Positions 14,502-43,120 of a stretch of 64,000 bases of DNA are shown one piece after another (the stretch's first letter is position 1; every line of letters begins with the position of its first letter). Both the position numbers and the translations under genes were made by a program. The DNA is from a virus. The stretch is taken from the IMG/VR virus record IMGVR_UViG_3300017613_000561, positions 28,448 to 92,447 of that record; one strand, 5' to 3'. The notes below the pieces were generated by a model that was not told the DNA's origin, did not search any database, and saw only the letters and a program-made list of their open reading frames with translations.

Positions 14502-15662
14502 ATGAAGCAGCTAGTAATATCAATGACAGATCCAAGTAAGAAGTATGAGGTGGACCTGGAGAAGGAAACCTGTAATTGTCCAGCCTATGCTAAGGGTAAG
14601 ACTCGCCCCTGTAAGCATCTGGTTGAGCTGGGAGTTAAGCCAAAAAAGAAGAAGGTAGTCACCAGCTATGTGAAGTCAGCTATCCAGAAGGCCTACCGTA
14701 GGAATGATCAGCCATTGTTAATCTGGAGCTTTAACTGGCTCTGGAAGAATGAGCGTAACTGGATCTGGTGGAGATACATGGTGCTACCAGCAGAAGACCA
14801 CTGGAAGGGTGTGGTGGAGATGGGCAGGGCTCATGATGAAGCTAAGATGGTCTATAAGCATGATCCTGTGGGGGCCAAGCATTTATTGCTATGTGGGTTG
14901 TTGAACACGATGGCTCAGAAGAAGAGTCAGGATTCTAACGGGATTCGCCAGTTAGCTGATGTAGTCAGATCTACTAGCCAGGTTAAGACCCCGCACTTGA
15001 TGGGGGCCATTATTAAGAAAGTAGATGTATCCCAGATGTTGTTCTTTGAGTTTTACCGCAGTATTTCTGACCCAGTAGCCGTTGATGCTAAGGGTCTGAT
15101 ATCCCCCATTGTTTGGGAGACTATCTGGCATAAGGTAGCTGAACTGAAAGAGTCGGGTATTAGTCTGGGGAAGTACGTAGATCTGTGTGATGGGATCAAG
15201 GCTATGCAGTACCGCGCAGCCATGGGGGGAGGCCCAGGATACACCACTCTGTTTCTGGCAGTAATTGCCCTCCAACTCTACTACACAGAGCTGGGACGAT
15301 CTATTACAGGGGAGCCTAGTGATGAGGTTCTGTCTTCTGGGGAATGGATTACCCCGCATGTAACCCCGCCGTGGTGCTGCTTGGATATGCATACAGGGCC
15401 TGGGAAGAGAGTGTTGGGCTACATCACCAAGATTGTCAGTAACACGCATATGGATGGTGCCGAATGTAAGGCAGCAGTAGAAGAGATTTGGTTCATAAAT
15501 GAAACCGCGCTGGTGAACGAAACCGATGAAGACAGTGTTTGGTGGAAGCTGGGATGTAACGCCTATCTGATCCAGCACGGAGTAAAGCCAAAAGAGATGA
15601 AGAAACTTTGGGACGAGAAGTTGAGAGATATCGTCCGTAAGAAGATCATATTGTGGAGCTAG
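14502..15662 (+). CDS. SWIM zinc-finger protein, collar-like domain
   Basis: 386 aa. The N-terminus holds a SWIM motif (CNCPAYAKGKTRPCKHL, about residues 24-40), which binds zinc and usually DNA or protein. The next region (YVKSAIQKAYRRND..., about residues 56-105, ending in MVLPAEDHW) recalls the C-terminal collar of MgsA/RarA and clamp-loader subunits, without any ATPase core. The rest is helical and not recognised. A link to clamp or replication-fork biology is inference. It has its own promoter and the GCTAGGAGC leader. Confidence 0.6.
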   Translation: MKQLVISMTDPSKKYEVDLEKETCNCPAYAKGKTRPCKHLVELGVKPKKKKVVTSYVKSAIQKAYRRNDQPLLIWSFNWLWKNERNWIWWRYMVLPAEDHWKGVVEMGRAHDEAKMVYKHDPVGAKHLLLCGLLNTMAQKKSQDSNGIRQLADVVRSTSQVKTPHLMGAIIKKVDVSQMLFFEFYRSISDPVAVDAKGLISPIVWETIWHKVAELKESGISLGKYVDLCDGIKAMQYRAAMGGGPGYTTLFLAVIALQLYYTELGRSITGEPSDEVLSSGEWITPHVTPPWCCLDMHTGPGKRVLGYITKIVSNTHMDGAECKAAVEEIWFINETALVNETDEDSVWWKLGCNAYLIQHGVKPKEMKKLWDEKLRDIVRKKIILWS

Positions 15663-16700: not shown

Positions 16701-17846
16701 ATGAATATTGATTTGTGGGACAGAGTAGTACCGTACTTCAAGCCGTATGTAACGCCAGAGATGGGGGAGGCAGTAGCTAAGACAGTAGCCAGTGGTTGGC
16801 TGACCACCGGTAAGAAGGTAAAGGAACTGGAAAGTGAGTTCCAGAAGATGTTTCCTTCCAAGCAGGTACTGATGACGAACTCAGCTACAGCCGCCTCCCT
16901 TATCGCATTTGACGCCCTAGATCTGAGATGGTCTGAAGTAATCACCACACCGTACACGTTCAGCTCACCAGCTATGATGCTCCACCATTTGGGCGCTAAG
17001 CTTGTCATGGTTGACATTGATCCCAACACATTCAATATCGACCCCCACAAGGTACTGGACGCTGTAAACCCTAATACGAAAGCCATACTGCTCACCCACT
17101 TCGGTGGACGGGCCTGTGACTTGACAAGTATTTATGAGATAGCCAGTCAGTGTAACCTCAAGGTGATAGAAGACTGTGCTCATGCATTGCCTGCACGGTA
17201 CAAGGGCAGAACAGTGGGAGACATGGAGGCAGACGCTTCCTTTTTCAGCTTCTATGCCAACAAGACCATGACCACGGGCGAGGGGGGCATGCTGCTTTTG
17301 AAGGATGGAGCTGTAGCTGAGCATGCACGTAAGTTGTTGCTGCATGGATTTTCCACAGATGCCTATGACCGGTACACGAACTCAGGTGCGTCCTGGTTCT
17401 ATGATGTTGGAGTCGCCGGGTGGAAGGCCAATATGACAGATGTGGCTGCTACGCTGGGCTTGGAGCAGTTACGGTATTTGTACAGCATGTCAGATGATAG
17501 AACCCGAGTTGCAGAGATGTACACGTTGGCCCTGAAATCCTTGGAGTTGCACTGCCCGAGATTCACTTACGATTCAGCATGGCATGTATACCCGATCCTG
17601 GTGGATGCTGCCTACCGTGATGCCTTTATTGAGAGCATGAAGGAGAAAGGCGTTCACTGTTCAGTGCACTTCCGGCCGATAAACCAGCATTCCTTTTGGA
17701 AGGAAGTATTGCCTAGACACAGTACCCCAGTATCTGACAGTGTTGGAGCCCGAGTAGTGTCCCTGCCTATCTATCCGAACATGCCTATGGATAACGTGAC
17801 GTATGTAGTACGGGCTGTAACCGCTACGTTGAAAGAATTTGTATGA
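16701..17846 (+). CDS. DegT/DnrJ/EryC1/StrS aminotransferase
   Basis: PLP-dependent sugar aminotransferase of 381 aa, normal for the family. K188 (FSFYANKTMTTGEGG) is the expected PLP-binding lysine and D158 (VIEDCAHA) the pyridine-nitrogen partner; NSATAAS near residue 60 binds phosphate. These enzymes put an amino group on a keto-sugar nucleotide such as a UDP-4-keto or 3-keto sugar. The dehydratase at 18456 could make such a substrate. Start at ATG 16701 (GAGGGG upstream). It overlaps the methyltransferase gene by 4 nt (ATGA) as the first gene of the six-gene operon. Confidence 0.87.
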   Translation: MNIDLWDRVVPYFKPYVTPEMGEAVAKTVASGWLTTGKKVKELESEFQKMFPSKQVLMTNSATAASLIAFDALDLRWSEVITTPYTFSSPAMMLHHLGAKLVMVDIDPNTFNIDPHKVLDAVNPNTKAILLTHFGGRACDLTSIYEIASQCNLKVIEDCAHALPARYKGRTVGDMEADASFFSFYANKTMTTGEGGMLLLKDGAVAEHARKLLLHGFSTDAYDRYTNSGASWFYDVGVAGWKANMTDVAATLGLEQLRYLYSMSDDRTRVAEMYTLALKSLELHCPRFTYDSAWHVYPILVDAAYRDAFIESMKEKGVHCSVHFRPINQHSFWKEVLPRHSTPVSDSVGARVVSLPIYPNMPMDNVTYVVRAVTATLKEFV

Positions 17847-18466
17847 CTCCGCAAGAATACGTCAGCAAGGTCATAACTTTTTCAGATAGGGCCTCATGGG
17901 AGATGGAAGTGCTCAGTGTTTTAGACTGGGCCAATGTCTGTGGGGTCTATGCTTTGGACTATGGTAGTGGTTCTGGAAAGCTATGCTCTATCCTGAAGCG
18001 GCACTATGACTTTCAGTATGTTTGTGGTGTTGACATAAACACTGGGTTGTTGGCATATGCCAGGAAGACATACCCAGCCTTTACGTTTACGAACCCCATA
18101 GCCTTGCTTAGCAGCCCAATGACCTATGATATGGTGACCATGTTTCATGTGTTGGGGCGTGTACCTAATCCAATAACCACTTTGCAGATGATCAGGAATG
18201 TTTTGGTCGATAGGGGTAGGTTGTTGATAGTGATTCCCAATAAGGTGTATGACACCCTGATGGTACCGTACAATACGGTTACGGGTTATAAGGGTGATCC
18301 TACTATTTGTCACAGCTGGACACGAAGAGAAGCCATGAAGCTATTGCGAGCTTGTGGGTTTATTGACCTGGAGTACACCTATTTTGGTGAGCCAGTTAAG
18401 GGGTTTCCAGATATCCCCTGTCTTAGGTCACGCATAGCTATTCATGGGGTTGTGGATGAGCGTTGA
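17843..18466 (+). CDS. SAM-dependent methyltransferase
   Basis: 207-aa class I methyltransferase. Motif I is LDYGSGSGKL (about residues 39-48), then VCGVDINTGLL for the acidic loop and YDMVTMFHVLGRVPNP for motif IV. The layout resembles UbiE/sugar methyltransferases rather than DNA methyltransferases: no DPPY, no PC loop, no target-recognition domain. Substrate is probably a sugar or its nucleotide, from operon context. Overlaps genes on both sides. Confidence 0.8.
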   Translation: MTPQEYVSKVITFSDRASWEMEVLSVLDWANVCGVYALDYGSGSGKLCSILKRHYDFQYVCGVDINTGLLAYARKTYPAFTFTNPIALLSSPMTYDMVTMFHVLGRVPNPITTLQMIRNVLVDRGRLLIVIPNKVYDTLMVPYNTVTGYKGDPTICHSWTRREAMKLLRACGFIDLEYTYFGEPVKGFPDIPCLRSRIAIHGVVDER

Positions 18467-19484
18467 AGGTAAGGTAGTGTTAGTCACAGGGGCAGGTGGG
18501 TCTATAGGAACCCGTCTGGTTAATGAGCTGTTGAATAACCCTAAGCCAAAGAGCCTTATACTTGTAGACCTGTGTGAGTACAATTTGTATCAGGTACAGC
18601 GAGTAGTCGAAGAATCCGGCGTAGCACTTAAGTGCAAGTACCTGTTGGCAGACATCCGGCACCGACATCTGATGGACTGTGTGTTTAGAGCAGAGGCCCC
18701 AGATGTGGTGTTTCACGCGGCAGCTCTGAAGCATGTTCCAATGTTGGAGACTCCGCATAATACGTTGGAGGCCATACGTACAAATATCCTGGGGACTAAG
18801 AATGTGCTGGACATGTCTGTGAGGTATGGAGCAGAACAGTTCCTACTGATATCGACAGATAAGGCCGTGAACCCTGTGTCCATGATGGGGGCCACCAAGA
18901 CCTTTGCTGAGGGCTATGTGCGGGAGGCAGCTACATCAGTCAGCCTGAATGTGTCCATAGTGCGCTTCGGTAATGTTCTTGGTAGTTCCGGGTCAGTAGT
19001 GCCTCTGTTTGCTCGTCAGGTTGCTGAGGGCGGGCCTGTAACCGTAACGCATCCAGATATCATTAGGTATTTCATGTCTATAGATGATGCTGTGCGTTTA
19101 GTAGTTGAATCCGCACACCTGACGATAGCTTCGCATAAGACCTCATGCACTTACGTGCTGAACATGGGAGATCCTGTGAAGATAGATGACTTGGCTAAGA
19201 AAATGATCTGGGAGTCGGGTAAGGATATAGCCATAAAGTACATAGGGCTCAGAGCCGGTGAGAAGATGGAGGAGGAGCTGCATTATGCTAATGAGTTCCT
19301 GGTACCGACAAGTCGTAAGAATATCAATATAGTACGGCAGAGCGACCACCTTAGAAGGGGGTTTGTTCGCGTAGCCAATGAGCTTGTTACCTTGTGTGAT
19401 GAACGTGAGTTGCCTGATGCCTTTGTTGCCATTAAAGAAAAAGTTCCGTATCAAGGAGATACGATATTATGCGAGAGTTTGTAG
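18456..19484 (+). CDS. Nucleotide-sugar 4,6-dehydratase/epimerase (CapD/FlaA1-type SDR)
   Basis: 342-aa extended SDR. The NAD(P) motif is TGAGGSIG at residues 11-18; FHAAALKHVPMLE and STDKAVNP (133-140) are hallmarks of the polysaccharide-biosynthesis SDRs (WbpM, CapD, FlaA1, PseB), which act on UDP-GlcNAc. The usual YxxxK is MxxxK here (M144, K148), as in the large WbpM-type enzymes. The product would be a 4-keto-6-deoxy sugar, a substrate for the aminotransferase at 16701. It carries an exact palindrome inside the coding sequence. Start ATG 18456 overlaps the methyltransferase. Confidence 0.85.
   Translation: MSVEGKVVLVTGAGGSIGTRLVNELLNNPKPKSLILVDLCEYNLYQVQRVVEESGVALKCKYLLADIRHRHLMDCVFRAEAPDVVFHAAALKHVPMLETPHNTLEAIRTNILGTKNVLDMSVRYGAEQFLLISTDKAVNPVSMMGATKTFAEGYVREAATSVSLNVSIVRFGNVLGSSGSVVPLFARQVAEGGPVTVTHPDIIRYFMSIDDAVRLVVESAHLTIASHKTSCTYVLNMGDPVKIDDLAKKMIWESGKDIAIKYIGLRAGEKMEEELHYANEFLVPTSRKNINIVRQSDHLRRGFVRVANELVTLCDERELPDAFVAIKEKVPYQGDTILCESL
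18624..18635. repeat. Palindrome GCACTTAAGTGC (inside gene)
   Basis: Exact copy within the dehydratase coding sequence, not near a gene junction. Confidence 0.8.
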
Positions 19485-20140
19485 TAACACATCACCAGCC
19501 TAGTTTCCTGCCTTGGGTTGGGTATTGGAACAAGATGGCAGTATGTACGCATTGGTCTTATTTGGTTGGTGTGGGCTTTGCAAAGAGGGATTACCAGAAT
19601 AGGGTCGCCCTTAATGGTAGTTGGCTTACCGTTCCTGTAAGAGCTGGATTGAACGAAAAAATACAAGATGTTTGTATTGCCGGTAAGTACAAGCACAAGA
19701 TTGCGACCACGATCAAGCAGAACCTCATGAACAAGAAGATGCCCTACGGTCACAGGCTGGAAGAGCTGGTGCATATCTTGGAGACAATAGAGCCTAAGTA
19801 CTTGTATGAGCTATGCATGTCCATGGACGCTATGATTGTCGCTAGTTTGGGACTTGAGAAAACGTACAGTTTGAGTGGTGCAGGTAATGTAGCTGGGGAC
19901 ACAAAGACCAAGGGTTTGTCCAGACGGTTAGCCAGTGAGTTCCCCCCGAATGTTGACACGTACCTGTTGGGGGCAGGAACCTCCTCGTATTTCGTAAAGG
20001 AGGAGTTCCAGTACGACTGTAAGTTGATGGTCCAGAAGATTGCTGGTTGGGCGGAGAAGGACACAATTCTGAAAGTCCTGGCTACTGTTAACGACCCGTT
20101 GTCCTATGTGATGGAAGCTGCTACGTGGGAGGAGCTATGA
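19469..20140 (+). CDS. WbqC-family protein
   Basis: 223 aa. THHQPSFLPWVGYWNKM at the N-terminus and FAKRDYQNRVAL with SWLTVPV match the WbqC family, found in O-antigen and glycan clusters. These proteins are thought to act on nucleotide-linked amino sugars or glycans, but the reaction is not well established. It overlaps the dehydratase by 16 nt and the deacetylase by 4 nt, so expression is tightly coupled. Confidence 0.82.
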   Translation: MREFVVTHHQPSFLPWVGYWNKMAVCTHWSYLVGVGFAKRDYQNRVALNGSWLTVPVRAGLNEKIQDVCIAGKYKHKIATTIKQNLMNKKMPYGHRLEELVHILETIEPKYLYELCMSMDAMIVASLGLEKTYSLSGAGNVAGDTKTKGLSRRLASEFPPNVDTYLLGAGTSSYFVKEEFQYDCKLMVQKIAGWAEKDTILKVLATVNDPLSYVMEAATWEEL

Positions 20141-20805
20141 AGAGCATATTGGTAATAGCACCGCATCCTGATGATGCAGAGTATGGTGTTGGTGGATACA
20201 TAGCTAAGTGTGCGGGCGTAGCTAATGTGACCATAGCTACCATGTATGCTGGAGATTATCCCACGTATACTACGCACGTATTGGGGGAGGACCGTAAGAG
20301 CGAATCCCTTCAGGCAGCTAAAGTGCTGCACACCAGGATAATACATCTTGATGTGTGCAAGGATAATGACTACATGAACTACCTGGGGGAGCTTTGTCTA
20401 GCTGTAGATATGATGCTGGACAAGATAAGACCCGATGTCCTGTTTATTCCACTGCCCTCGTATAACCAGGATCATCAGGCGGTATACACAGCATGTATGG
20501 CTGCTACAAGGCCGGTAAAGGAGATACTGCCTCAGAAGATATATGCCTACGAGTACCCTATGCAGAATTGGGGGGCTGGAGCGGAGCAGCATGCCATCAT
20601 GGGACGGACGTACATTCCGTTGAGTAACCATGACATGGACAAGAAGTTAGAAGCCCTGAGGTGTTACAAGTCCCAGTTAAGAAAAGATGAAGTGAACTTA
20701 AGTGCACTGGGCGGAGTAACTGCCTTGGCTCGCCTAAGAGGAGCAGAGTGTAGACAGGTGTACGCTGAGTTGGTGTACCTCATAAAGAACAAGACGGAGA
20801 TCTGA
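20137..20805 (+). CDS. PIG-L/LmbE-type deacetylase
   Basis: 222 aa. APHPDDAEYG (PHPDD at residues 9-13) is the zinc-binding and catalytic motif of N-acetylglucosaminyl deacetylases; the distal histidine lies in SYNQDHQAVY. It would remove acetyl from an N-acetyl amino sugar, exposing a free amine. Start ATG 20137 is inside the WbqC stop overlap with GGAGGAG upstream. A one-mismatch palindrome lies at 20694, inside the gene. Its presence after a GlcNAc-type dehydratase fits aminosugar chemistry. Confidence 0.85.
   Translation: MKSILVIAPHPDDAEYGVGGYIAKCAGVANVTIATMYAGDYPTYTTHVLGEDRKSESLQAAKVLHTRIIHLDVCKDNDYMNYLGELCLAVDMMLDKIRPDVLFIPLPSYNQDHQAVYTACMAATRPVKEILPQKIYAYEYPMQNWGAGAEQHAIMGRTYIPLSNHDMDKKLEALRCYKSQLRKDEVNLSALGGVTALARLRGAECRQVYAELVYLIKNKTEI
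20694..20705. repeat. Palindrome variant GAACTTAAGTGC (inside gene)
   Basis: One change in the left arm, in the deacetylase coding region. May be chance. Confidence 0.35.
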
Positions 20806-22299
20806 ATGTCCACTAAGATTTTGATTGATTCGATATACTCAGCAAGGCCCAGTCACTGCGCCTCGGCCGTTAAGATGTGGCGGTTCGTAGATTACGTACT
20901 GAATACGCAAGGTAGAACGGATGTATTTTTTTATTGGCTAATCCCAGAATGGTTGGAGGAGGAAGACCTAGCCTTCTACCCGGAACACGACAACGTAGTT
21001 TACCTTCAGTTTCCGTATCACCGGGGAGACAGGACCCGAGCGTATCTGGCATTCCCGGCAGAGTTGGATAGGCTGTTGGCCTTCAATGGGGTGGCCTGGG
21101 ATTTCGATATTGTAATGACGAACCGAACAACTCAAGTACCCTTGATGAAGATGGTGATGTCCAGTCCAAGAGAGCCAACGAAGACATGGATGAAGAACGT
21201 CTTCCTGTTTGAGGAAATGCCCCTCATGGCCTTTAAGTCCACAGTAGCCATATCGAATGTGCCGGTAACGGAGCGCATGACCATAGCGGGGCATCTAGCC
21301 GCAGACAGGACCGCTATAACGATCTCTCACGAAAGGGATGGTCTGATATCGGGGGCCAAGAGATATGTGCCTCCGTCCTCGGTCATGGAGCTGAGGGACA
21401 AGATTAAGGTAACAAGCCCGTCTTTGCTGGAAGATTTTGAGGAGAAAGATAAGAAGTACCGGTTTACCAAGGGGGAAGAGAAGTTTTGCCTAGCCTTCGT
21501 AGGTAGGGTGTCTGCTACAGATCATATCAGGGAAGTGTATGACACCATGGTTAAGCATTGGATCACGAAGGGAGATGACCGTATCAAATTGATAGTCTCC
21601 ACTGTAACCCCCGTGTATAAGATTGAGCCGCCTGAAATGGTGGAGTACATAAACTTGCCCAGAGATGAATTTTGGGAGGCGCTGAAAACAGAGATGCACT
21701 GCATTATGTACTTGGCTGAGGAGGCTGGGTTTGGCATGTCCCTAATGGAGCCCCTGATGTTTGGGGTACCAGTAGTGTTGATCAGAGCCCCGTGGTCAGA
21801 GGCTTTGGTAGGCAAGGATTACCCGCTGTTCATAGACACGGAGTCAAAGGCCTATGGGATGGTGAAGGCTATCCATGATGACTACGAGGAGTATTACCGG
21901 CAGTTTATCCAGTGGCAACATGATGTACTGCAGCCTATGTTTCAGGAAGGTGGGCAGTATTCGCAGTCATTCTATGACTATATGTACAAGGGCCTGTTGG
22001 AGTTTGAAGAGATGTTGCCTGCCAGATATGCAGCAGAGCAGGCCAGTAAGCAGAATAACAACATAGTCCAGGCACTGCTAGACGGAGACCCTGAAGAGTT
22101 TGTTTTGTTTGATCGTATACGGGAGCTGGGTAAGAAAGGAGATCTCAAGTCCTTGCAGTCCAAGACCCGAGAGGGGGACAGGGACCGTAGGGGCCTAGTA
22201 TGGTCAACGCCATGGAACGATATACGGATAGCCCTGAAGACATTCTTTGGGTATGAGGACGCCAGTGTAACTGTTGGACATTTGAGGAAGGTAAAATGA
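20806..22299 (+). CDS. GT-B glycosyltransferase (GT4-like)
   Basis: 497-aa GT-B fold enzyme. AFVGRVSATDHIREVYD begins the C-terminal Rossmann domain and EEAGFGMSLMEPLMFGVPVV carries the EX7E-type donor-binding pattern of GT4-like enzymes. It starts right after the deacetylase stop. It would transfer the amino sugar made by the operon to an acceptor: phage DNA base, virion protein or host glycan. The charged C-terminal extension (about 400-497) is unusual. Overlaps the ParB-like gene by 4 nt, which physically links the sugar genes to packaging. Confidence 0.8.
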   Translation: MSTKILIDSIYSARPSHCASAVKMWRFVDYVLNTQGRTDVFFYWLIPEWLEEEDLAFYPEHDNVVYLQFPYHRGDRTRAYLAFPAELDRLLAFNGVAWDFDIVMTNRTTQVPLMKMVMSSPREPTKTWMKNVFLFEEMPLMAFKSTVAISNVPVTERMTIAGHLAADRTAITISHERDGLISGAKRYVPPSSVMELRDKIKVTSPSLLEDFEEKDKKYRFTKGEEKFCLAFVGRVSATDHIREVYDTMVKHWITKGDDRIKLIVSTVTPVYKIEPPEMVEYINLPRDEFWEALKTEMHCIMYLAEEAGFGMSLMEPLMFGVPVVLIRAPWSEALVGKDYPLFIDTESKAYGMVKAIHDDYEEYYRQFIQWQHDVLQPMFQEGGQYSQSFYDYMYKGLLEFEEMLPARYAAEQASKQNNNIVQALLDGDPEEFVLFDRIRELGKKGDLKSLQSKTREGDRDRRGLVWSTPWNDIRIALKTFFGYEDASVTVGHLRKVK

Positions 22300-23135
22300 G
22301 CACTGCGTATGATAAGACCAAGAATCATGAACGTATCTGGTTGCCGATACACCAGTTGGAGCCTAACCCAGATAACCCGAACAAGATGAGCCCCCGGGCC
22401 TTTGACTTGTTGGTAGACAACATAGAAAGCAAGGGCATGACTGAGGACATTGAGGTGCGGCGTATTGGTAAGGACCAGTACCGCATCATTGGTGGTCATC
22501 ATAGGTGGGGAGCCTGCGAGTACTTGGGCTGGAAGGAAGTACCCTGTATTGTAAATACTGACCCAGATATGACTGACGAAGTGGAGAATTTCCAGGTAGT
22601 CAGGATGAACATGATCCATGGTAAGTTGGACCCAACCAAGTTCATGGCTATGTATCAGAAGGTGTCAGAAAAGTACTCTGATGAGATACTGGCTGAGTCC
22701 TTTGGTTTTGCTGACGAAGCGGAGTTTGCTAAGTTGATCAAGCAGACAGCCAACACGCTTCCCCCAGAGTTGAAGTCAAAGTTTAAGGAGGCAGCTGCGG
22801 AGATAAAGACAGTAGAAGATTTAGCCACAGTGCTGAATGAATTGTTGTTCACGTATGGAAACACTGTAGCCTATGGATACATGATCTTTGATTTCAACGG
22901 TAAGGAGTCTGTGTGGGTCAGGATGAACCCCAAGGATAAGGTTGCTGCTATGAAAGTAGGAGACCTGTGTAGGGCTAACTCCAGGATGATGGACTCAGTA
23001 GTGTCTGCTCTGTTTCAGCTAACCCAGGAGGAGGGTGATTTGGGGGATTCAGTACGAGCCCATTTGTTAGATGTAACCCACCCAGAAGAAATTGATTTGT
23101 CTGCTACATGGCCGACACAGGATCAGTTGAATTGA
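22296..23135 (+). CDS. ParB-like protein next to terminase
   Basis: 279 aa. The N-terminal ParB/Srx fold contains IHQLEPNPDNPNKM and GGHHRWGA (66-73), the nucleotide-binding GxHRW box. The remainder is helical. Such proteins often sit immediately upstream of phage terminases, where a role in DNA binding, nicking or packaging is supposed. Coupled to the glycosyltransferase (ATGA overlap) and to the next gene (28-nt overlap). Confidence 0.82.
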   Translation: MSTAYDKTKNHERIWLPIHQLEPNPDNPNKMSPRAFDLLVDNIESKGMTEDIEVRRIGKDQYRIIGGHHRWGACEYLGWKEVPCIVNTDPDMTDEVENFQVVRMNMIHGKLDPTKFMAMYQKVSEKYSDEILAESFGFADEAEFAKLIKQTANTLPPELKSKFKEAAAEIKTVEDLATVLNELLFTYGNTVAYGYMIFDFNGKESVWVRMNPKDKVAAMKVGDLCRANSRMMDSVVSALFQLTQEEGDLGDSVRAHLLDVTHPEEIDLSATWPTQDQLN

Positions 23136-23833
23136 AAGTAACGAAGGCCAATAAGTATGCTCCTATACGTAGCATGGGGGCAGATAAAGTAGACCGCATG
23201 GAGGTGATGCTGGTGCAAGGTATGTCTTGCCCCAAGGTAGCTAAGAAGATTCAAGACGAATGGAAACTACTGCAGGACATAAAGACAGGCACGTTGACCA
23301 AACAGATACTACGCTATAAGAAAGAAGTGCTGGATTCTAAGCTACATAGCAAGTTATTGATCAAGACAACGGAGGACAATAAAGATACGAAGGGTACAGA
23401 TGTAAAGCAGTACAAGACTGTAATCAAAACGACCACCAAGCTTGATGTGATAGACGCACTGGAGGATTTGATACTGCTGCAGAACCATAGGGTAGCTAAG
23501 GTGTTCACCATGGAGGAGAGTTTGCCTACGTTGATGGGCACTCTACGCTATGAATTGAAAGAGCTGCGAGACATGATAAAGCAGTTATCAGACTTAAAAT
23601 TTGACTTAGGACTGGTAAAAAGACAACCTAAGAAGATTGTTGGATCTATAGACTTGCATTCACCAGAAGTTTTAGAGGATGAAGATGTACTTTCCAAGAT
23701 GCTCGCAGATAAGGGGGCCATGGATGATGCAACCACGGAAGTGTTTGCAGCCTTAGAAGCTATGGTGAAAGAAGCCGGGGAGATTGAGGATGGAGAGTTT
23801 ACTGACTGCGTACCCACTGACGGGGACAGTTGA
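23108..23833 (+). CDS. Putative terminase small subunit
   Basis: 241 aa, directly upstream of and overlapping the large terminase. N-terminal residues about 15-75 form a small helix-turn-helix-like unit (VLVQGMSCPKVAKKIQDEW); the central part is helical, with a KELRDMIKQLSDLKF heptad region near residue 150 that could oligomerise; the C-terminus is acidic. These are features of small terminases, which recognise phage DNA and stimulate the motor. The call is positional plus architectural; sequence identity was not recognised. Confidence 0.6.
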   Translation: MADTGSVELKVTKANKYAPIRSMGADKVDRMEVMLVQGMSCPKVAKKIQDEWKLLQDIKTGTLTKQILRYKKEVLDSKLHSKLLIKTTEDNKDTKGTDVKQYKTVIKTTTKLDVIDALEDLILLQNHRVAKVFTMEESLPTLMGTLRYELKELRDMIKQLSDLKFDLGLVKRQPKKIVGSIDLHSPEVLEDEDVLSKMLADKGAMDDATTEVFAALEAMVKEAGEIEDGEFTDCVPTDGDS

Positions 23834-25736
23834 GCAGCAAAGATTTATATTTTACGCCCGCAAATGTATAGCCCAGTTTTATGGTATGCGGGCTGAGAGG
23901 ATCATAGATAAGGTCGAGGTTATCCAGGTGCTGGAGACCAAGATCAAGTTTTATCTCAAAGTAGTAACCGACATCAAGAACAAGAGTTTCGCCTTTGCAG
24001 ACTCCGAGCTTAAGAAGAAGGATATGTATGAGGTGCCCCCGGTGCCCATCCGGGATTTCCTGTTACGCCCGTTCTACCTGAACCTTGAAGGGCAGATATA
24101 CCCCGAAGTAATGACTGCCATGGAAGACCTGAATGGTGGTGGGTATGTAGAGGCAGTACTGACCGGTGCTATTGGTACTGCCAAGACCACTATCGCAGTA
24201 TGGACCATGGCGTATCAGTTGTACCTTCTGTCCTGCATGGAGAACCCCCAGAAGACCTTTGGACTGGAACGGGCCTCGGAGATTCTGCTGATATTCCAGT
24301 CGATAACCAAGGAGTTGGCTAAGGGGGTTGATTATGCTCGCTTCAAGGCCCTGCTGGAGAACAGCCCGTACTTCCAGAGGCACTTCGCCTACGATAAGAA
24401 CATAGAGTCGGAGCTTAGATTTCCGAACCGTATCATTGTTAAGCCTGTGTCGGGATCAGACACTGCTGCCATTGGTCAGAACGTGATGGGCGGTATCATT
24501 GATGAGCTGAACTACATGGCTGTAGTGGAGAACTCCAAGGCCAGTGTGGATGGGGGGGAGTACGATCAGGCAATCGCGGTGTACAACTCCATAGCTCGTA
24601 GACGTAAGTCCAGGTTTATGCAGCAGGGGGCACTGCCAGGAATCCTGTGCCTTGTCTCGTCCAAGCGGTACCCGGGCCAGTTCACTGACCTTAAGCAGGA
24701 AGAGGCCAAGAATGATCCTACGATCTACGTGTATGACAAGCGAGTATGGGACATTAAGCCAGATGCCTTTTCTAACGTGTGGTTCCAGGTGTTTGCAGGG
24801 GATGAGTCCAGGCACCCACGTATTATTGAAGAAGATGAGATTGTTGATGTCTCCGACAGGGATTTGATTATAGATATTCCTGAAGAGTACAGGATGGAGT
24901 TTGATCAGGATATCATCAATGCCCTGCGTGAAATCGCAGGTATGTCTACGCTGGCAAGACATCCGTTTATCATGAACACCGATTCCATTGCTGCCTGTAT
25001 GACTAATGATCGTCCGATAGTGAACAAGCACTGGGTAGACTTCAGATTTGAAAAGCTGGGGATTTACCAAGGTAGGTTTGCGGATCTGAATCGTCCACGA
25101 TGGGCTCATGTCGATCTGGGGCTCACAGCTGACTCGGCCGGTATATGCATAGGGTATGTCAAGGGGTTCAAGAAAGTAGACCGGGGAGACCACTACGAAG
25201 TACTGCCGGAGATAGTAGTAGATGCCTTGCTTGAAGTGAGGCCCCCTAAAGGTGGGGAGATCCAGTTCCATAAGATCAGAAGCCTGTTCTATAAGCTGAT
25301 AAGTATGGGGTACCCGTTGAAGTGGGTGAGTTATGACAGCTATCAGTCTACGGACTCCATGCAGATGCTGCGTAGTAAAGGTCTGGTGTCTGGGCATGTC
25401 TCCATGGACATCACCCGGGACCCGTATGAGATCACCAAGACAGCACTGTACGATCACAGGTTGTCGATACCGTTTCATGCAAAGCTACGTAAAGAACTAG
25501 CCTCGCTTGAGGACGACCCCAAGACCGGAGATATAGATCACCCGCCCAACGGGTCTAAGGATGTGGCCGATGCCCTTGCAGGTGTAGTGTCGGGCCTCAC
25601 AACCAGAAGAGAGATCTGGGTGCAGCACAAGATACCGACAGGGCAGATACCGACTTGGCTGACGACACCCAAGAAGGACAATATGAAAGCAGCACACGCC
25701 AAGGATATAGGTGACGATATTTCCGAAGTGATGTAA
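23790..25736 (+). CDS. terL: Terminase large subunit
   Basis: 648-aa packaging motor. Walker A is TGAIGTAKT (about residues 125-133), Walker B is IIDE (about 236-239), and the C-terminal nuclease contains WAHVDLGLTADSAG near residue 445 with further acidic residues at PPNGSKDVADALAG. ATG 23790 is preferred because GGGGAG lies 7 nt upstream; it overlaps the small-subunit gene by 44 nt. It cuts concatemers and pumps DNA into the prohead through the portal at 47002, which is unusually far away (21 kb). Confidence 0.92.
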   Translation: MESLLTAYPLTGTVEQQRFIFYARKCIAQFYGMRAERIIDKVEVIQVLETKIKFYLKVVTDIKNKSFAFADSELKKKDMYEVPPVPIRDFLLRPFYLNLEGQIYPEVMTAMEDLNGGGYVEAVLTGAIGTAKTTIAVWTMAYQLYLLSCMENPQKTFGLERASEILLIFQSITKELAKGVDYARFKALLENSPYFQRHFAYDKNIESELRFPNRIIVKPVSGSDTAAIGQNVMGGIIDELNYMAVVENSKASVDGGEYDQAIAVYNSIARRRKSRFMQQGALPGILCLVSSKRYPGQFTDLKQEEAKNDPTIYVYDKRVWDIKPDAFSNVWFQVFAGDESRHPRIIEEDEIVDVSDRDLIIDIPEEYRMEFDQDIINALREIAGMSTLARHPFIMNTDSIAACMTNDRPIVNKHWVDFRFEKLGIYQGRFADLNRPRWAHVDLGLTADSAGICIGYVKGFKKVDRGDHYEVLPEIVVDALLEVRPPKGGEIQFHKIRSLFYKLISMGYPLKWVSYDSYQSTDSMQMLRSKGLVSGHVSMDITRDPYEITKTALYDHRLSIPFHAKLRKELASLEDDPKTGDIDHPPNGSKDVADALAGVVSGLTTRREIWVQHKIPTGQIPTWLTTPKKDNMKAAHAKDIGDDISEVM

Positions 25737-36365: not shown

Positions 36366-36962
36366 ATGAAGAACCAACAGTATGTAGAGGCGTCAGCCAG
36401 AACAGAACCTGCCATGCCTGAGGGCATGCATATAGAGGCTCAGACTGCCAGAATATCCCATGCCATTCTGGGCATTGTGGGTGAGGCCGGTGAGGTACTG
36501 GATTGGTTGCGGGACGGGCCGATCAACATGTCCGTGGATGTAATACTGGAACTCAAAGAGGAGATGGGCGACATATATTGGTATCTGGCGGTGTATAGTC
36601 GGGTCAGGTGTAAGCCCTTGGATGCTCTGGTGGATTGTGGTGAGTGTATCTATGATGAAGAAACAGCTACGGAAGCCAGTGTGGGCCTGATGTTGAAAGC
36701 TACCAATATCATGGACTACTGGAAGAAGTGTCTGTTTTACGGGAAGGAGAAGGACTTTGTGTTGCTGGACTGTATGTTTGGTGAGTACATTCGGGCATTA
36801 CGCAGAGTAATGACCTGTTGTGGTTTCATAGAAGAGCAGATCCTGCAGATGAACTACGACAAGTTGAAGGCCCGGTACCCAGATGGGTTCTCAGAGGATA
36901 ACGCCATCAACCGGGATAAGGGGGCTGAAAAGGAGGCCATGGCAGAGAGTACAGTATCATGA
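36366..36962 (+). CDS. MazG-like NTP pyrophosphohydrolase
   Basis: 198 aa. GIVGEAGEVLD (E40, E43) and ELKEEMGDIYWYLA (E66, D69) form the metal-binding EExxE...ExxD set of the all-alpha NTP pyrophosphatases. Such phage enzymes hydrolyse unwanted NTPs or dNTPs or (p)ppGpp. The C-terminal half (about 85-198) extends the usual fold. Follows AGGAGG. The substrate cannot be told from the sequence. Confidence 0.78.
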   Translation: MKNQQYVEASARTEPAMPEGMHIEAQTARISHAILGIVGEAGEVLDWLRDGPINMSVDVILELKEEMGDIYWYLAVYSRVRCKPLDALVDCGECIYDEETATEASVGLMLKATNIMDYWKKCLFYGKEKDFVLLDCMFGEYIRALRRVMTCCGFIEEQILQMNYDKLKARYPDGFSEDNAINRDKGAEKEAMAESTVS

Positions 36963-37210
36963 GTGACATGCTCAAAGTCAGGATGTTTGACCAGCCCAGT
37001 GATGCCCCCACCTACAGGCCCCCGGAGTATGAGGCTGTCACGTTGAAGTCAGTCAATGTTGTGGGGAACGGGACGACAGATGGGAACCCCACTGTAGATC
37101 TGATCTTGATAGATGATAGAGGTCAGAAGTATGTGGCCTTGGTAAAGGGCTCGTTCATTGAGGCCGTGGGTGGGGCGGTATCTGGTAAACGCAAGAAGAG
37201 TAAGCACTAA
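36959..37210 (+). CDS. Small hypothetical protein (83 aa)
   Basis: ATGA overlap with MazG. Beta-rich with a VDLILIDDRGQKYVALVKG sheet, then a basic tail (KRKKSKH). Not recognised. Confidence 0.55.
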   Translation: MSDMLKVRMFDQPSDAPTYRPPEYEAVTLKSVNVVGNGTTDGNPTVDLILIDDRGQKYVALVKGSFIEAVGGAVSGKRKKSKH

Positions 37211-37217
37211 ATAACAT

Positions 37218-37245
37218 TTGACAAACCCAGTATATCTGGTATAGT
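37218..37245 (+). promoter_or_regulatory. Phage promoter (TTTGACAAAC class)
   Basis: TTGACA at 37218-37223, 16-bp spacer, TATAGT at 37240-37245. Drives the PPDK-like gene and probably the genes to about 41130. Confidence 0.88.
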
Positions 37246-37280
37246 TATTGTATAGTTTATGAAATCTCAAGGAGGGACAC

Positions 37281-39401
37281 ATGTTAGAAGTATCCGCATT
37301 TGGAGCCATTGGTGATTCTGCCACGGTCTGCCAGAAAGAATTGGTAGGGGGCAAGGGTGCAGCACTAGCTGAGATGGCTTCTCTAGGGTTGCCAGTACCA
37401 CCGGGTTTCACCCTGACCACAGAGCTTTGTAATCTCTACCGCTGGCTACATCAATATGGCCGAAAGGCAGAGGACAAAGATGCTGTCATTGAAGACATCA
37501 TGGAGCTGATAGTAACGCCCATGTTGGAACGGTTGGAGAGCCATTTTGGATACATGCCTTTGTTAAGTGTTCGTTCCGGTGCTCGGGTGTCGATGCCTGG
37601 AATGATGGACACAGTTTTAAATGTTGGGCTAGTTGAATCCAACCTTGTGGAATGGGCAGATCGTATAGGTGGACGGGCTACATTAGATAGCTACCGTAGA
37701 CTTATTCAGATGTATGGTTCGGTAGTCCTCAATGTTGAAGATAGACATTTTGAAGGAATACTCCAAAGTGTTAAGGATCGTGCCGGAGTGGAGGACGATG
37801 CAGGGCTTGAAAATGAGCATTTGTTTGGTTTGAACGAGAAGTACCTGCAGCTGTTGGACAGCATCAATGAGCCGCTTCCTCAGACCTTGGAAGAGCAGCT
37901 GGCTGGAGCTATTCGGGCAGTATTTGATAGTTGGGATAATGACAGGGCTAAGCACTATCGTAAGATGCATGGGTACCCAGATGATTGGGGTACAGCTGTA
38001 GTCGTTCAGGCCATGGTGTTTGGCAATATGAATGAGCAGTCCTGTTCCGGCGTGTTGTTCACCAGAGACCCAGCCACTGGGCAACCTGGAGTTGTTGGTG
38101 AGTTCCTTCCCAATGCTCAAGGCGAAGATGTAGTTGCCGGAGTCAGAACCCCGCAACCTCTTATTGATATGTTTGATTGGAATGAGTCGGCACATATAGA
38201 GTTGTTTGAATTGGCTCATAAGATGGAATTGCATTATCGTGATATGCAGGACATGGAGTTCACAGTTCAGGATGGGAAGTTGTATATCCTGCAAACCAGA
38301 GATGGTAAGCGTACTGCCAAAGCAGCCTTTAGGATTGCCCACAATATGTATACGGAAGAGATGATATCCAAGGAGGATATGAGAAAGCGGCTGACTGGTA
38401 AGATGTATGATGCACTCAAGTGCACCAAGATTGACCCAGAGCATTATGTTGAGCCCTGCCACAAGGGGATTCCAGCGGGGGGTAATGTAGTTTCGGGAGT
38501 AATCGCTACCTCAAGTTCCATGGCGGTAGCCTTGGCAGGCAAAGCCAACGTAATCCTGGTAACGAATGAGACGACCCCTAACGACATCAAGGGTATGGAG
38601 GCTAGTGTAGGTATCCTGACACGTACAGGAGGAGCTACTAGCCACGCTGCAGTGGTTGCTAGGGGCCTAAACAAGGCCTGTGTGGTGGGGTGTCAGGACC
38701 TGGACCTTGATACTGTGGCAGATAATACGCATGTAACCATAGACGGTGCCACTGGGGAGGTCTGGTTGAAAGACATGCCCCTGGTGGGGGGTGGTAGTGA
38801 TTCCTATGCTGAGACAGTGCTTGAAATTCTGAGAGGCGCTAAGGAGAAAGCGCCAGCATATGTTTTTAGCGGCACCCTGCAGGAAGGAGAGCCTGTCTGG
38901 ATAGATACAGCCCACATGTCCGTGTCTAATATGGTGGATGTTATTGCTGCCCTGACGTATCACCCGCTGGTAGTCATAGAGTTGTCGGATTGGTTCAGTA
39001 ACGGTGATGGCCTGGATGATAATTTTTTCAAGACCATGATAACTCCGCAGTACATTAAGGAGGCTAGGTTGGAAGGTCTAAAGACTAAGGTACTGGCCTT
39101 AGAAGCAATAGCAGTAACCAAGCATCCGGTGGTGTTCGTAAAGCTGCCAGATATTGCCCCAGCCGCTTATAAGAAGTCACTGGAGAAGGCAGGATACACG
39201 GTACTGGGATCGGTGAACACAGTAGCTGATTTGTTGAAGGGCGGGGTGGTAGACCCCTCAACTGACTTTATCAAGAAGGTCATGGGTGGGAAGACGGCGT
39301 ACAACAAAATGATAGCGATGTTGAAGAAGAACGGTGTGGAGTTTATGGACATGCCGAAACCAGTATACAAAGAAATGGAAGTATACGAATTGCTGGGTTA
39401 G
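37281..39401 (+). CDS. PPDK-like phosphotransferase, unusual C-terminus
   Basis: 706 aa. Residues 1-350 match the ATP-binding half of pyruvate phosphate dikinase (LVGGKGAALAEM with K25, SVRSGARVSMPGMMD with R98, EFLPNAQGEDVVAG). Residues about 395-475 match the swivelling phosphohistidine domain, with the catalytic histidine at H455 (GGATSHAAVVARG), exactly the number used for the Clostridium PPDK. The expected C-terminal PEP/pyruvate TIM barrel (about 340 residues) is replaced by about 220 residues I do not recognise, so the phosphoryl acceptor may not be pyruvate. Compare rifampin phosphotransferase, which also changes the acceptor domain. Carries a palindrome variant inside. Confidence 0.8.
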   Translation: MLEVSAFGAIGDSATVCQKELVGGKGAALAEMASLGLPVPPGFTLTTELCNLYRWLHQYGRKAEDKDAVIEDIMELIVTPMLERLESHFGYMPLLSVRSGARVSMPGMMDTVLNVGLVESNLVEWADRIGGRATLDSYRRLIQMYGSVVLNVEDRHFEGILQSVKDRAGVEDDAGLENEHLFGLNEKYLQLLDSINEPLPQTLEEQLAGAIRAVFDSWDNDRAKHYRKMHGYPDDWGTAVVVQAMVFGNMNEQSCSGVLFTRDPATGQPGVVGEFLPNAQGEDVVAGVRTPQPLIDMFDWNESAHIELFELAHKMELHYRDMQDMEFTVQDGKLYILQTRDGKRTAKAAFRIAHNMYTEEMISKEDMRKRLTGKMYDALKCTKIDPEHYVEPCHKGIPAGGNVVSGVIATSSSMAVALAGKANVILVTNETTPNDIKGMEASVGILTRTGGATSHAAVVARGLNKACVVGCQDLDLDTVADNTHVTIDGATGEVWLKDMPLVGGGSDSYAETVLEILRGAKEKAPAYVFSGTLQEGEPVWIDTAHMSVSNMVDVIAALTYHPLVVIELSDWFSNGDGLDDNFFKTMITPQYIKEARLEGLKTKVLALEAIAVTKHPVVFVKLPDIAPAAYKKSLEKAGYTVLGSVNTVADLLKGGVVDPSTDFIKKVMGGKTAYNKMIAMLKKNGVEFMDMPKPVYKEMEVYELLG
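38412..38423. repeat. Palindrome variant GCACTCAAGTGC (inside gene)
   Basis: One change, within the PPDK-like coding region just before the phosphohistidine domain. Confidence 0.45.
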
Positions 39402-39447
39402 GGGTAAGACGGTACACTACGGGAGTCCCTAAGTATGGAACCTCCGT

Positions 39448-39861
39448 ATGACAATAAAGACAAGGCATAGGTGCCCCAAGTGTACAGGGGCGGCATGGTT
39501 GGAAATAGAAGACAGAGAGGTGGTGATTCGATGCCTCTGTGGGTTTCTAAAGATAGTGGAAGAAATTCGGGACGGTATGGTAATCACCCGGACTGAACAT
39601 CCCACACTCCATTCCCTGCCAAGGACCGGAACAAAGCTCTCAAAGTGCCTTGGAGCCCTGTATGTTTACTCTCCTCAAAGCACTGGAGAGTTGGCTGTAA
39701 AACTAGACCAGACGAACAATGAAACAGCAGTTCAGTTGACCGTACTGCAGACCAAAGGATTGGCAGTTAAGGTGACGCAGGGGAAAGGAATCCCCGGTGG
39801 TAGTGTTTGGGATATGAGTAGCATTGGTAATCGTCTATTGGATGGAGGAAGAAATGAGTAA
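39448..39861 (+). CDS. Zinc-ribbon plus winged-helix protein (137 aa)
   Basis: N-terminal CPKC and CLCG pairs suggest a zinc ribbon; residues about 55-125 look like a winged helix (LGALYVYSPQSTGELAVKLD with a following LTVLQTKGLAVKV). Possibly a transcription regulator. Overlaps the CsrA-like gene by 8 nt. Confidence 0.5.
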   Translation: MTIKTRHRCPKCTGAAWLEIEDREVVIRCLCGFLKIVEEIRDGMVITRTEHPTLHSLPRTGTKLSKCLGALYVYSPQSTGELAVKLDQTNNETAVQLTVLQTKGLAVKVTQGKGIPGGSVWDMSSIGNRLLDGGRNE

Positions 39862-40198
39862 GTTGACCACATTAGTACTAGGGATCAAAGAAGATAAGAG
39901 TTTTTATCTGAACGACATTAGGGTGACAGTTACAGGAGTGCCTACAGACCGCAGTTTCGTAGTGTCTGTCGGTGGGGAAAACATACCTGTAGTTGGTAGC
40001 CAACCGATACCCTTAGGCATGACACCAGAAGTATTTCTTATGGTGGGGCCGGGGACACACAGGACTTCCATGCATCGTAAAGGCACAGCAAAGGTGGTGA
40101 TTCAAGCCCCTAAGGAAGTGACTATCCTGCGGGAAGACCTCTATTTGAAGGGTTTTGATGAGCGTAACCATAGTAAGGAAGTCCCAGGTACAGCCTAA
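39854..40198 (+). CDS. CsrA-like RNA-binding protein with insertion
   Basis: 114 aa. The first 30 residues (LTTLVLGIKEDKSFYLND then IRVTVTGV) fit CsrA strands 1-2, and residues 79-100 (AKVVIQAPKEVTILREDLYL) fit the CsrA C-terminal half, including R93 at the RNA-contact position of 'HREE'. An insertion of about 50 residues splits them. CsrA dimers bind GGA in ribosome-binding sites. Start ATG 39854, after GGAGGAAG. It could regulate the phage's GGA-rich leaders such as GCUAGGAGC; this target is inference. Overlaps the following gene by 41 nt. Confidence 0.7.
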   Translation: MSKLTTLVLGIKEDKSFYLNDIRVTVTGVPTDRSFVVSVGGENIPVVGSQPIPLGMTPEVFLMVGPGTHRTSMHRKGTAKVVIQAPKEVTILREDLYLKGFDERNHSKEVPGTA

Positions 40199-40640
40199 TC
40201 TGGTGCTGCAAGGATTTGAAATAACCCCAGAGGCCTTGGATGATTATTATCACATGTTCCCCGGTGGGTCGGAGGAGCACCTGGATGGTTTGCTCCGAAA
40301 GATGGTCAAAGTAAAGGTGAAGGGCGGAACGCATGCAGTTGGAGAGGCCCTGTTTCAAGTGAATAAAGCCAGGGTGTTTGGGATCGGTTTCTTAGCAGGA
40401 ATGGGAGCCAAGCCAGGACCCCTCAGTTGCCCAGTGTGTGGTGGGCGGGGAAGTCTGGTCTTTTATGATGAATGCCCTTTGTGCCATGGAAGTGGATGCC
40501 CGTCATGTTCTGATGGGATGGTTAAGGTAGAGAAGCCATGTACGCATGGCACTTGTATAGTAAAAGCGAGAGGGAAGGGAAATGCTAGGAAAAAGACTCA
40601 GCGGAAGCATCATTTTCAACAACGGCATCGTAGACGGTAG
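40158..40640 (+). CDS. DnaJ-type zinc-finger protein (160 aa)
   Basis: N-terminal half is alpha/beta; the C-terminal half has four CxxC units (CPVCGGRGS, CPLCHGSG, CPSC, then C) like the DnaJ cysteine-rich domain, ending in a very basic tail. It may be a redox or chaperone adaptor. Start ATG 40158. The long tail overlaps the phosphatase gene by 59 nt, so it may be fortuitous. Confidence 0.6.
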   Translation: MSVTIVRKSQVQPNLVLQGFEITPEALDDYYHMFPGGSEEHLDGLLRKMVKVKVKGGTHAVGEALFQVNKARVFGIGFLAGMGAKPGPLSCPVCGGRGSLVFYDECPLCHGSGCPSCSDGMVKVEKPCTHGTCIVKARGKGNARKKTQRKHHFQQRHRRR

Positions 40641-41130
40641 GATCTACGGCGGATCATATCTCGACAGGCCAAGACAGCTGCCAGGAGTAAAGATGGCCGT
40701 AGAGATTCCTTTGACCTGCGATGTCAGCATACCTACGAAAGATTTCAGTGTCCCGCCTGCAAAGGTGATGGAGCGGGGTATGATACATGCCTATGTACTG
40801 TTACAGAAGCACGGCATGATCTATGTCGGCTGCATGGGTGGGGTTGGTAGGACCGGGTTGTTCATGGCCCTCATGGTCCGGTGGATGAATGAGACTATGG
40901 CCCGGTACTCTAAGAGGACAAGGATTGGCCCCCAAACAAAGGTACGACACCTTTTGCGCGGTCCCGGGTCTGGATGGGGTAAGGAAGCTATTGGGGACTG
41001 TGAATATGTCCCGCCTATTGCTTATGTACGGAAGGCATATTCGCCTCATGCCGTGGAGACAGAACAGCAGAAGAAGTACGTTACTGACTTCGACATGACT
41101 AGACTGAATGCCTTGGTGGGGTGGCTGTAA
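40582..41130 (+). CDS. Dual-specificity-type phosphatase
   Basis: 182 aa. The P-loop CMGGVGRTG has C84 and R90 (CX5R), and the acid loop PTKDFSVPP has D54, both in the correct spacing for cysteine-based tyrosine/dual-specificity phosphatases. N-terminal strands (GGSYLDRPRQLPGVKM) complete the fold. It would dephosphorylate a protein, RNA 5' end or other phosphoester. It follows the PPDK-like and CsrA-like genes in one unit. Ribosome-binding site GAGGGAAGGG. Confidence 0.8.
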   Translation: MLGKRLSGSIIFNNGIVDGRIYGGSYLDRPRQLPGVKMAVEIPLTCDVSIPTKDFSVPPAKVMERGMIHAYVLLQKHGMIYVGCMGGVGRTGLFMALMVRWMNETMARYSKRTRIGPQTKVRHLLRGPGSGWGKEAIGDCEYVPPIAYVRKAYSPHAVETEQQKKYVTDFDMTRLNALVGWL

Positions 41131-41137
41131 ATAACAT

Positions 41138-41166
41138 TTGACAAACCTACCTGACTATGACATAGT
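41138..41166 (+). promoter_or_regulatory. Phage promoter (TTTGACAAAC class)
   Basis: TTGACA at 41138-41143, 17-bp spacer, CATAGT at 41161-41166. Drives the 348-aa gene and the second phosphatase. Confidence 0.85.
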
Positions 41167-41196
41167 TATGGTATAAATAAACACAAGGACGGGATC

Positions 41197-42243: not shown

Positions 42244-42252
42244 GAGCAAGAC

Positions 42253-43053: not shown

Positions 43054-43056
43054 CAT

Positions 43057-43085
43057 TTGACAAACGTAGCCACCCATGGCATAGT
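43057..43085 (+). promoter_or_regulatory. Phage promoter (TTTGACAAAC class)
   Basis: TTGACA at 43057-43062, 17-bp spacer, CATAGT at 43080-43085. The last of this class before the structural genes; it may drive the polymerase operon. Confidence 0.85.
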
Positions 43086-43120
43086 TATATTATAGAGAGG
43101 GCAAACTCATGGAGGGAAAG

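What the first reader, a model, noticed from the sequence alone, without database searches (positions are those of the whole stretch)
16701..22299. Six-gene aminosugar operon joined to ParB and terminase genes
Aminotransferase, methyltransferase, CapD-type dehydratase, WbqC, PIG-L deacetylase and a glycosyltransferase could together make and attach an amino sugar. All overlaps are 4-28 nt and the last gene overlaps the ParB-like gene next to terminase, so the operon is tied to DNA handling. This may modify phage DNA (a new hypermodification) or a surface glycan. No base-modifying gene (such as a thymidylate-synthase homologue) is seen in the window.
Basis: partly seen in the sequence, partly recalled or inferred. 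Interest (0 to 1): 0.7.

Follow-up and report, generated by a model that had tools for sequence, protein, structure and literature searches.

The report
Phage aminosugar cassette with unknown target
A phage carries a compact set of six genes that should build an unusual amino sugar and attach it to something; similar sets, reshuffled, sit beside the DNA-packaging genes of many related phages, which hints that the sugar goes onto phage DNA, but the step that would prepare DNA for it could not be found.

Summary
Six intact genes (DegT aminotransferase, SAM methyltransferase, PglF/CapD-type dehydratase, WbqC-like, PIG-L deacetylase, GT-B glycosyltransferase) abut or overlap and run into a ParB-like gene, a small gene and TerL. 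The slot is conserved: GT next to ParB-X-TerL, usually preceded by a RarA-C-terminal-like protein, in phages of Stenotrophomonas, Rhodobacter, Rhizobium and Vibrio and in dozens of viral contigs, with reshuffled nucleotide-sugar genes. The full six-gene set recurs in L031, L041 and L047.

DNA glycosylation is the best-supported target but is not shown. For it: the slot, a soluble GT with a conserved extra C-terminal domain, no membrane glycosylation genes, and reported restriction resistance of relatives DLP3/DLP5. Against it: no thymidylate-synthase-type hydroxymethylase, ThyX, C5-methylase, QueC or TGT in this genome, and strong purging of 6-bp palindromes, as in unmodified T7 and unlike T4 or RB69 (though modified phage M6 also purges).

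DLP3 has no site at all for 10 of the 15 enzymes it was reported to resist; only SmaI, ClaI, EcoRI, NdeI and XbaI resistance needs modified DNA. Virion-protein or surface glycosylation remain open rivals. LC-MS of virion nucleosides would decide.

The parts
14502..15662 (+). RarA/MgsA C-terminal-domain-like protein with an N-terminal SWIM-like zinc motif and no AAA+ ATPase domain; heads the conserved slot (called LID in the tables)
   Evidence: Profile of 20 homologues hits 2qw6 at 1.6e-14 and E. coli RarA 3pvs at 8e-8; upstream of the sugar cassette in most GT-bearing loci with enough flank; SWIM E 0.006
16701..17846 (+). DegT/PseC/ArnB-type PLP sugar aminotransferase
   Evidence: Pfam DegT 1.8e-101; nearest solved ArnB 2.4e-62; below the PseC equivalog cut-off, 278.7 of 423.5 bits
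17843..18466 (+). SAM-dependent methyltransferase
   Evidence: Pfam Methyltransf_23 3.5e-15
18444..19484 (+). UDP-GlcNAc-type 4,6-dehydratase (PglF/CapD SDR)
   Evidence: Pfam Polysacc_synt_2 2.4e-95; nearest solved WlaL 3.2e-61
19469..20140 (+). WbqC-like protein, chemistry unknown
   Evidence: Pfam WbqC 3e-21
20125..20805 (+). PIG-L-type N-deacetylase
   Evidence: Pfam PIG-L 6.4e-18
20806..22299 (+). Retaining GT-B (GT4-like) glycosyltransferase with a conserved C-terminal extension (about residues 420-497) of winged-helix-like topology
   Evidence: AlphaFold2 pLDDT 93.5; Foldseek MshA/BshA, also phage HY126 GT 9iqz; extension conserved in the alignment
22296..23135 (+). ParB/Srx-superfamily protein; GGHHR in place of the canonical GERR motif
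   Evidence: Pfam ParB_N 1e-11; PHROG 26387 8.3e-73; homologues next to GT
23108..23833 (+). Conserved gene between ParB and TerL; small terminase subunit by position only
   Evidence: Found between ParB and TerL in most related loci
23784..25736 (+). Terminase large subunit
   Evidence: PHROG 7.5e-5; 53-58% identity to annotated TerLs

Best explanation
The operon is a nucleotide-sugar pathway with its own soluble glycosyltransferase. Inferred chemistry: UDP-GlcNAc is dehydrated to the 4-keto-6-deoxy sugar (18444 gene), aminated at C4 (DegT), N-deacetylated at C2 (PIG-L), methylated and perhaps acylated (MTase, WbqC), and the resulting UDP-amino-dideoxy sugar is transferred by the GT. The most likely acceptor is the phage's own DNA, modified after replication and before packaging, at a subset of bases, with the RarA-C-like and ParB-like proteins as DNA-side partners. 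Shown here: the genes, intact motifs, GT-B fold, conserved slot, and clustering of sugar-gene content on the GT tree. Inferred: substrates, order of steps, DNA as acceptor, role of ParB. Not found: an enzyme that would make a hydroxylated base.
For: Slot GT-ParB-X-TerL with variable sugar genes in phages of four unrelated proteobacterial host genera and dozens of contigs; alternatives in the slot are other nucleotide-sugar genes, UDP-Glc dehydrogenase, UDP-GlcNAc 2-epimerase, SDRs. Comparing the related phages KarBoss and DLP5 (GT+) with R21Y (GT-), the genes of this phage shared with the first two but not the third are mainly DegT, PIG-L, GT, ParB, the 23108 gene and 1026-1829. All cassette proteins look soluble (maximum KD19 1.64), and the GT carries an extra conserved C-terminal domain. 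Neighbouring 14502-15662 is RarA-C-like. On the GT tree the DegT label needs 8 changes against a shuffled mean of 13.0 (2 of 500 as low), and all four loci with the full five sugar genes fall in one GT clade (99/97). DLP3 and DLP5, with a similar cassette, have DNA reported refractory to 15/15 and 32/36 enzymes (PMC7326821; PMC5834331); DLP3 has 68 SmaI, 18 ClaI and 7 EcoRI sites that were reported uncut.
Against: No TS-family hydroxymethylase, ThyX, C5-MTase, QueC or TGT match in this genome, KarBoss or TM16. Palindromic 6-mers are strongly purged in this genome (19/59 depleted against 0.2% of non-palindromes), as in T7 and unlike T4, RB69, ViI and SPO1, so DNA is probably not densely protected; M6, a known hypermodified phage, also purges (20/36), so partial modification is not excluded. 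DLP3 lacks any site for 10 of the 15 enzymes it 'resists'. GT-minus sisters exist, so the function is dispensable. PDB matches of the GT include small-molecule, LPS and protein GTs.
Confidence: 0.45

Rival explanations
1. Virion-protein glycosylation: the GT decorates a capsid or tail protein of the phage with the amino sugar, changing recognition or stability.
For: Soluble GT and complete donor pathway need no membrane carrier; glycosyltransferases suggesting capsid glycosylation are noted in siphophages (Maravista abstract, PMC11256854); SdgB, a protein GT, is among the fold matches; compatible with palindrome purging.
Against: The cassette lies among recombination and packaging genes, not structural genes, and is tied to ParB and the RarA-C-like gene. 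Gives no reason for uncut SmaI/ClaI/EcoRI sites in DLP3.
Confidence: 0.25
2. Host surface glycan change: the sugar is put on LPS core, capsule or another envelope polymer to exclude superinfecting phages.
For: Most of the sugar genes belong to polysaccharide families; DLP3 authors suggested LPS modification by the RfaB-like GT (PMC7326821); LPS GTs are among the fold matches.
Against: No membrane GT, flippase or polymerase in the cassette, all proteins soluble by hydropathy; phages of unrelated hosts keep the same GT-ParB pair, which is odd for a host-specific surface target.
Confidence: 0.15
3. The sugar goes onto a small molecule, RNA or host protein during takeover (for example a bacillithiol-like conjugate).
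For: Best solved relatives of the GT are MshA and BshA, with which PIG-L deacetylases also cooperate in low-molecular-weight thiol synthesis (BshB1 match 1.9e-12).
Against: No thiol-pathway ligase (BshC/MshC) or other acceptor gene seen; does not explain the conserved tie to ParB, TerL and the RarA-C-like protein.
Confidence: 0.1

Closest known systems
Delepquintavirus DLP3/DLP5 cassette (gp96-104 of DLP3)
   Same: PIG-L, SDR, DegT, MTase, GT, ParB, X, TerL in the same slot; siphophages of about 97 kb sharing TerL, PPDK, PTP and PolA genes with this phage
   Different: No WbqC in the slot, GT only 24% identical; DLP5 has a divergent, apparently permuted ThyX-like gene after TerL that this phage lacks
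Mosigvirus (RB69/NP) arabinosyl-cytosine pathway
   Same: Phage cluster of sugar-modifying genes plus glycosyltransferases (PMC13390438)
   Different: Uses a TS-family 5-hydroxy-dCMP synthase, absent here; RB69 shows no palindrome purging; sugar is arabinose, not an amino sugar
Campylobacter Pgl/Pse UDP-diamino-sugar pathway (PglF/PglE, PseB/PseC)
   Same: Dehydratase closest to WlaL/PglF; DegT transaminase family
   Different: Phage enzymes are far below the PseB and PseC equivalog cut-offs; the operon adds PIG-L, MTase and WbqC
Vibrio siphophages R21Y, HC, SIO-2, J26 (proposed family Modirecodeviridae for J26 and relatives)
   Same: Same backbone: TerL, PPDK, PTP, phrog_20946, PolA, portal
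   Different: Lack GT, PIG-L and ParB in the slot

Membership tests
DNA hypermodification with glycosylated base (T4/RB69 type) | Phage TS-family hydroxymethylase or hydroxylase, or other known acceptor-making enzyme | tested here: not met
   No PF00303, Thy1, DNA_methylase, QueC or TGT match in the genome; the Tet_JBP control did not ring
DNA hypermodification with glycosylated base (T4/RB69 type) | Dedicated phage glycosyltransferase with donor-sugar genes | tested here: met
   GT-B model and five sugar genes
DNA hypermodification with glycosylated base (T4/RB69 type) | Modified nucleosides in virion DNA | not testable with these tools
   Needs LC-MS; only indirect digestion data exist for relatives DLP3/DLP5
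DNA hypermodification with glycosylated base (T4/RB69 type) | Little selection against restriction palindromes (as seen in T4, RB69, ViI, SPO1) | tested here: not met
   19/59 palindromes strongly depleted; but modified phage M6 shows 20/36, so not a strict criterion
PseB/PseC or PglF/PglE diamino-sugar enzymes | Dehydratase and DegT folds with catalytic motifs | tested here: met
   Pfam and motifs
PseB/PseC or PglF/PglE diamino-sugar enzymes | Equivalog-level score to PseB and PseC | tested here: not met
   180.1 of 407.75 and 278.7 of 423.5 bits
Gtr-type seroconversion cassette | Membrane flippase, bactoprenol GT or polytopic GT | tested here: not met
   No strongly hydrophobic segment in any cassette protein
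Virion-protein glycosylation systems | Glycopeptides on capsid or tail proteins | not testable with these tools
   Needs virion glycoproteomics
DLP5/KarBoss-like GT-ParB-TerL slot | GT followed by ParB, X and TerL, preceded by the RarA-C-like gene | tested here: met

The most novel reading that the evidence does not exclude
The cassette makes a methylated diamino-dideoxyhexose and links it to phage DNA without any known hydroxymethylase or TET enzyme, so that the base is either glycosylated directly or prepared by an unknown enzyme; sister phages swap the sugar by reshuffling the cassette, a combinatorial set of DNA glycans.
Probability: 0.25. Interest if true: 0.85.

Novelty: new variant of a known kind. 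Interest (0 to 1): 0.5.

Why it matters
If DNA is the target, this is a widespread and modular way for phages to put different amino sugars on their genomes, with a missing acceptor-making step that would be new chemistry. If not, it still defines a conserved glycosylation slot beside the terminase in phages of many hosts and points to a clear experiment. It also qualifies the reading of a published result: most of the restriction resistance reported for DLP3 can be explained by absent sites, so the case for modified DNA there rests on about five enzymes.

Tried and rejected
Hydroxymethylase elsewhere in the genome: not found. DLP5 'thymidylate synthase' DLP05_143: really a PTP-like protein with CIGGHGRTG. 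phrog_20946 (41197-42243) as the acceptor-making enzyme: well-modelled all-helical protein (pLDDT 89) with no PDB fold match, but present in GT-minus phages R21Y and SIO-2 and missing from several GT-plus ones, so not specifically linked. PPDK/PTP cassette: likewise shared with GT-minus phages. A viral-contig scan with the GT alignment failed for lack of conserved stretches, so the ParB alignment was used. C-terminal GT domain against the PDB by profile: no significant match. Promoter-like sites: 14 found, no more than in shuffles (15.2); terminator-like 10 against 6.5 (sd 2.5), not used. Papers not held: the rhodanese-phosphatase paper, Iyer 2013, Burke 2021, the 5-hydroxycytosine paper and the arabinosyl-hydroxycytosine paper, so overlap of this cassette with their predictions could not be checked.
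Full report
Observation. Pfam assigns DegT aminotransferase, SAM methyltransferase, Polysacc_synt_2 dehydratase, WbqC and PIG-L above cut-off; the glycosyltransferase is only weakly matched by sequence, but an AlphaFold2 model (pLDDT 93.5) is a clear GT-B fold, best solved matches MshA and BshA, with a phage GT (HY126, 9iqz) among them. The EX7E motif of retaining GT4-like enzymes is present. Neighbouring genes overlap by 4-28 nt, except PIG-L and GT, which abut. The window is bases 28448-92447 of a 92447-base viral record; I read the other 28 kb as well.

What the operon should make. From the families: a PglF/WlaL-like dehydratase, a PseC/ArnB-like transaminase (below the PseC equivalog cut-off), a deacetylase, a methyltransferase and WbqC point to a UDP-2,4-diamino-2,4,6-trideoxyhexose, methylated and perhaps acylated. 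This is inference from families, not shown.

The slot. Searches with ParB, GT, TerL and WbqC found the same arrangement in Stenotrophomonas DLP3/DLP5/Summit, Rhodobacter RcZahn, Rhizobium RHph_TM16/Y1_11, Vibrio KarBoss and, more diverged, Vibrio PG28/VH2_2019/V-YDF132; Arthrobacter KellEzio keeps GT and ParB without the sugar genes. A profile scan of viral contigs brought 80 ParB loci. Annotated with seed searches, the nearer half shows a fixed frame (RarA-C-like protein ... GT, ParB, X, TerL) with variable sugar content; the more distant ParB loci mostly lack the GT. Unassigned genes in the slot are again mostly nucleotide-sugar genes: UDP-glucose dehydrogenase, UDP-GlcNAc 2-epimerase, SDRs, WbqC, a second GT. 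The complete set of five sugar genes plus GT recurs in L047 (with an extra methyltransferase), in L041 (other order) and in L031 (moved to the other side of TerL). On a GT tree of 41 rows, DegT presence needs 8 changes against a shuffled mean of 13.0 (2 of 500 as low), and the four loci with the full set lie within one well supported clade of ten (99/97). The set therefore behaves as a functional unit matched to its GT.

Links to DNA. The gene that heads the slot, 14502-15662, belongs to a family whose profile matches the C-terminal domain of RarA/MgsA (2qw6 1.6e-14; E. coli RarA 3pvs 8e-8) without the ATPase. The GT carries about 75 extra C-terminal residues, confidently modelled and conserved across distant homologues, with an order of strands and helices like a winged helix; a profile search gave no significant PDB match, so DNA binding is a suggestion only. 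All cassette proteins are soluble by hydropathy. Comparing whole or nearly whole genomes, the GT-minus Vibrio phage R21Y shares almost the entire core with this phage; what this phage shares with GT-plus KarBoss and DLP5 but not with R21Y is mainly cassette genes, ParB, the 23108 gene (below threshold in R21Y) and one replication-region gene.

The missing step. Known DNA glycosylation acts on a hydroxylated base. A thymidylate-synthase-family protein was found in only 1 of 30 records searched, and not in this one; no C5-methylase, QueC or TGT in 16 genomes; Tet_JBP gave nothing, but its control did not ring. A divergent, apparently circularly permuted ThyX-like protein lies right after TerL in DLP5 (HRVFSRNAGSSR ... 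SPFEH) and another in the genome of L016, but not here, in KarBoss, TM16 or PG28. Pfam on 52 further ORFs of this genome found no base-modifying enzyme.

Restriction data, re-read. DLP5 DNA is reported cut by 4 of 36 enzymes and DLP3 DNA by none of 15, and both were called modified (PMC5834331; PMC7326821). I counted sites. DLP3 has no site for BamHI, HindIII, KpnI, SphI, PstI, SacI, SalI, ApaI, SpeI or XhoI, so 10 of the 15 results say nothing about modification; SmaI (68 sites), ClaI (18), EcoRI (7), NdeI (4) and XbaI (1) still need an explanation, which may be hypermodification, methylation, or a failed digest.

Palindromes in this genome. 36% of the 64 palindromic 6-mers occur at most once, against 0.94% of other 6-mers counted on both strands; by a Markov expectation 19 of 59 are strongly depleted against 8 of 3958 non-palindromes. 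In 40-kb stretches, T7 (unmodified) shows 13/46, this phage 8/47, 8/44 and 8/47, DLP3 19/45 and 21/45, KarBoss 18/48, GT-minus R21Y 15/49, while T4 shows 1/43, RB69 0/44, ViI 3/47, SPO1 3/38; M6, also hypermodified, shows 20/36 (which of these control phages are modified is from general knowledge). So this genome has been under restriction pressure at many sites: dense T4-like protection is unlikely, partial modification is possible.

Verdict. The operon is real, conserved, modular and tied to the packaging slot. DNA is my preferred acceptor at 0.45; virion protein 0.25; surface glycan 0.15; other 0.1. The finding is a new variant of known phage sugar-transfer systems with an unidentified acceptor.

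Noticed in passing
window 1-64000 (whole record): Extreme purging of many 6-bp palindromes (BamHI, XbaI, SacI, SalI and ApaI sites absent; EcoRI and XhoI once) while others such as PstI (53) and KpnI (45) exceed expectation; the whole phage group purges, each with its own set of missing sites.
   Followed up: yes
window 36366-43993: Second conserved cassette: MazG-like, PPDK-like dikinase, two PTP-like phosphatases (CxGGxGRTG), phrog_20946 and phrog_25950; largely shared also with GT-minus Vibrio phages.
   Followed up: partly
window 41197-42243: phrog_20946 protein: all-helical model (pLDDT 89), invariant RExRH, GGxxW and HNNGPIFNK motifs, no match among solved folds; looks like an uncharacterised enzyme.
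   Followed up: partly
L010 17127-18020; L174 690-1605: Divergent, apparently permuted ThyX-like proteins in DLP5 (right after TerL) and in the genome of L016; candidates for base modification in those phages.
   Followed up: partly
L093 9708-10496: DLP5 gene annotated thymidylate synthase ThyX is a PTP-like protein with CIGGHGRTG; PHROG 17568 carries the same misleading label.
   Followed up: yes
L008 and window ORFs: Among ORFs scanned: a peptide deformylase, a CsrA-like regulator and a TSCPD-domain protein.
   Followed up: no
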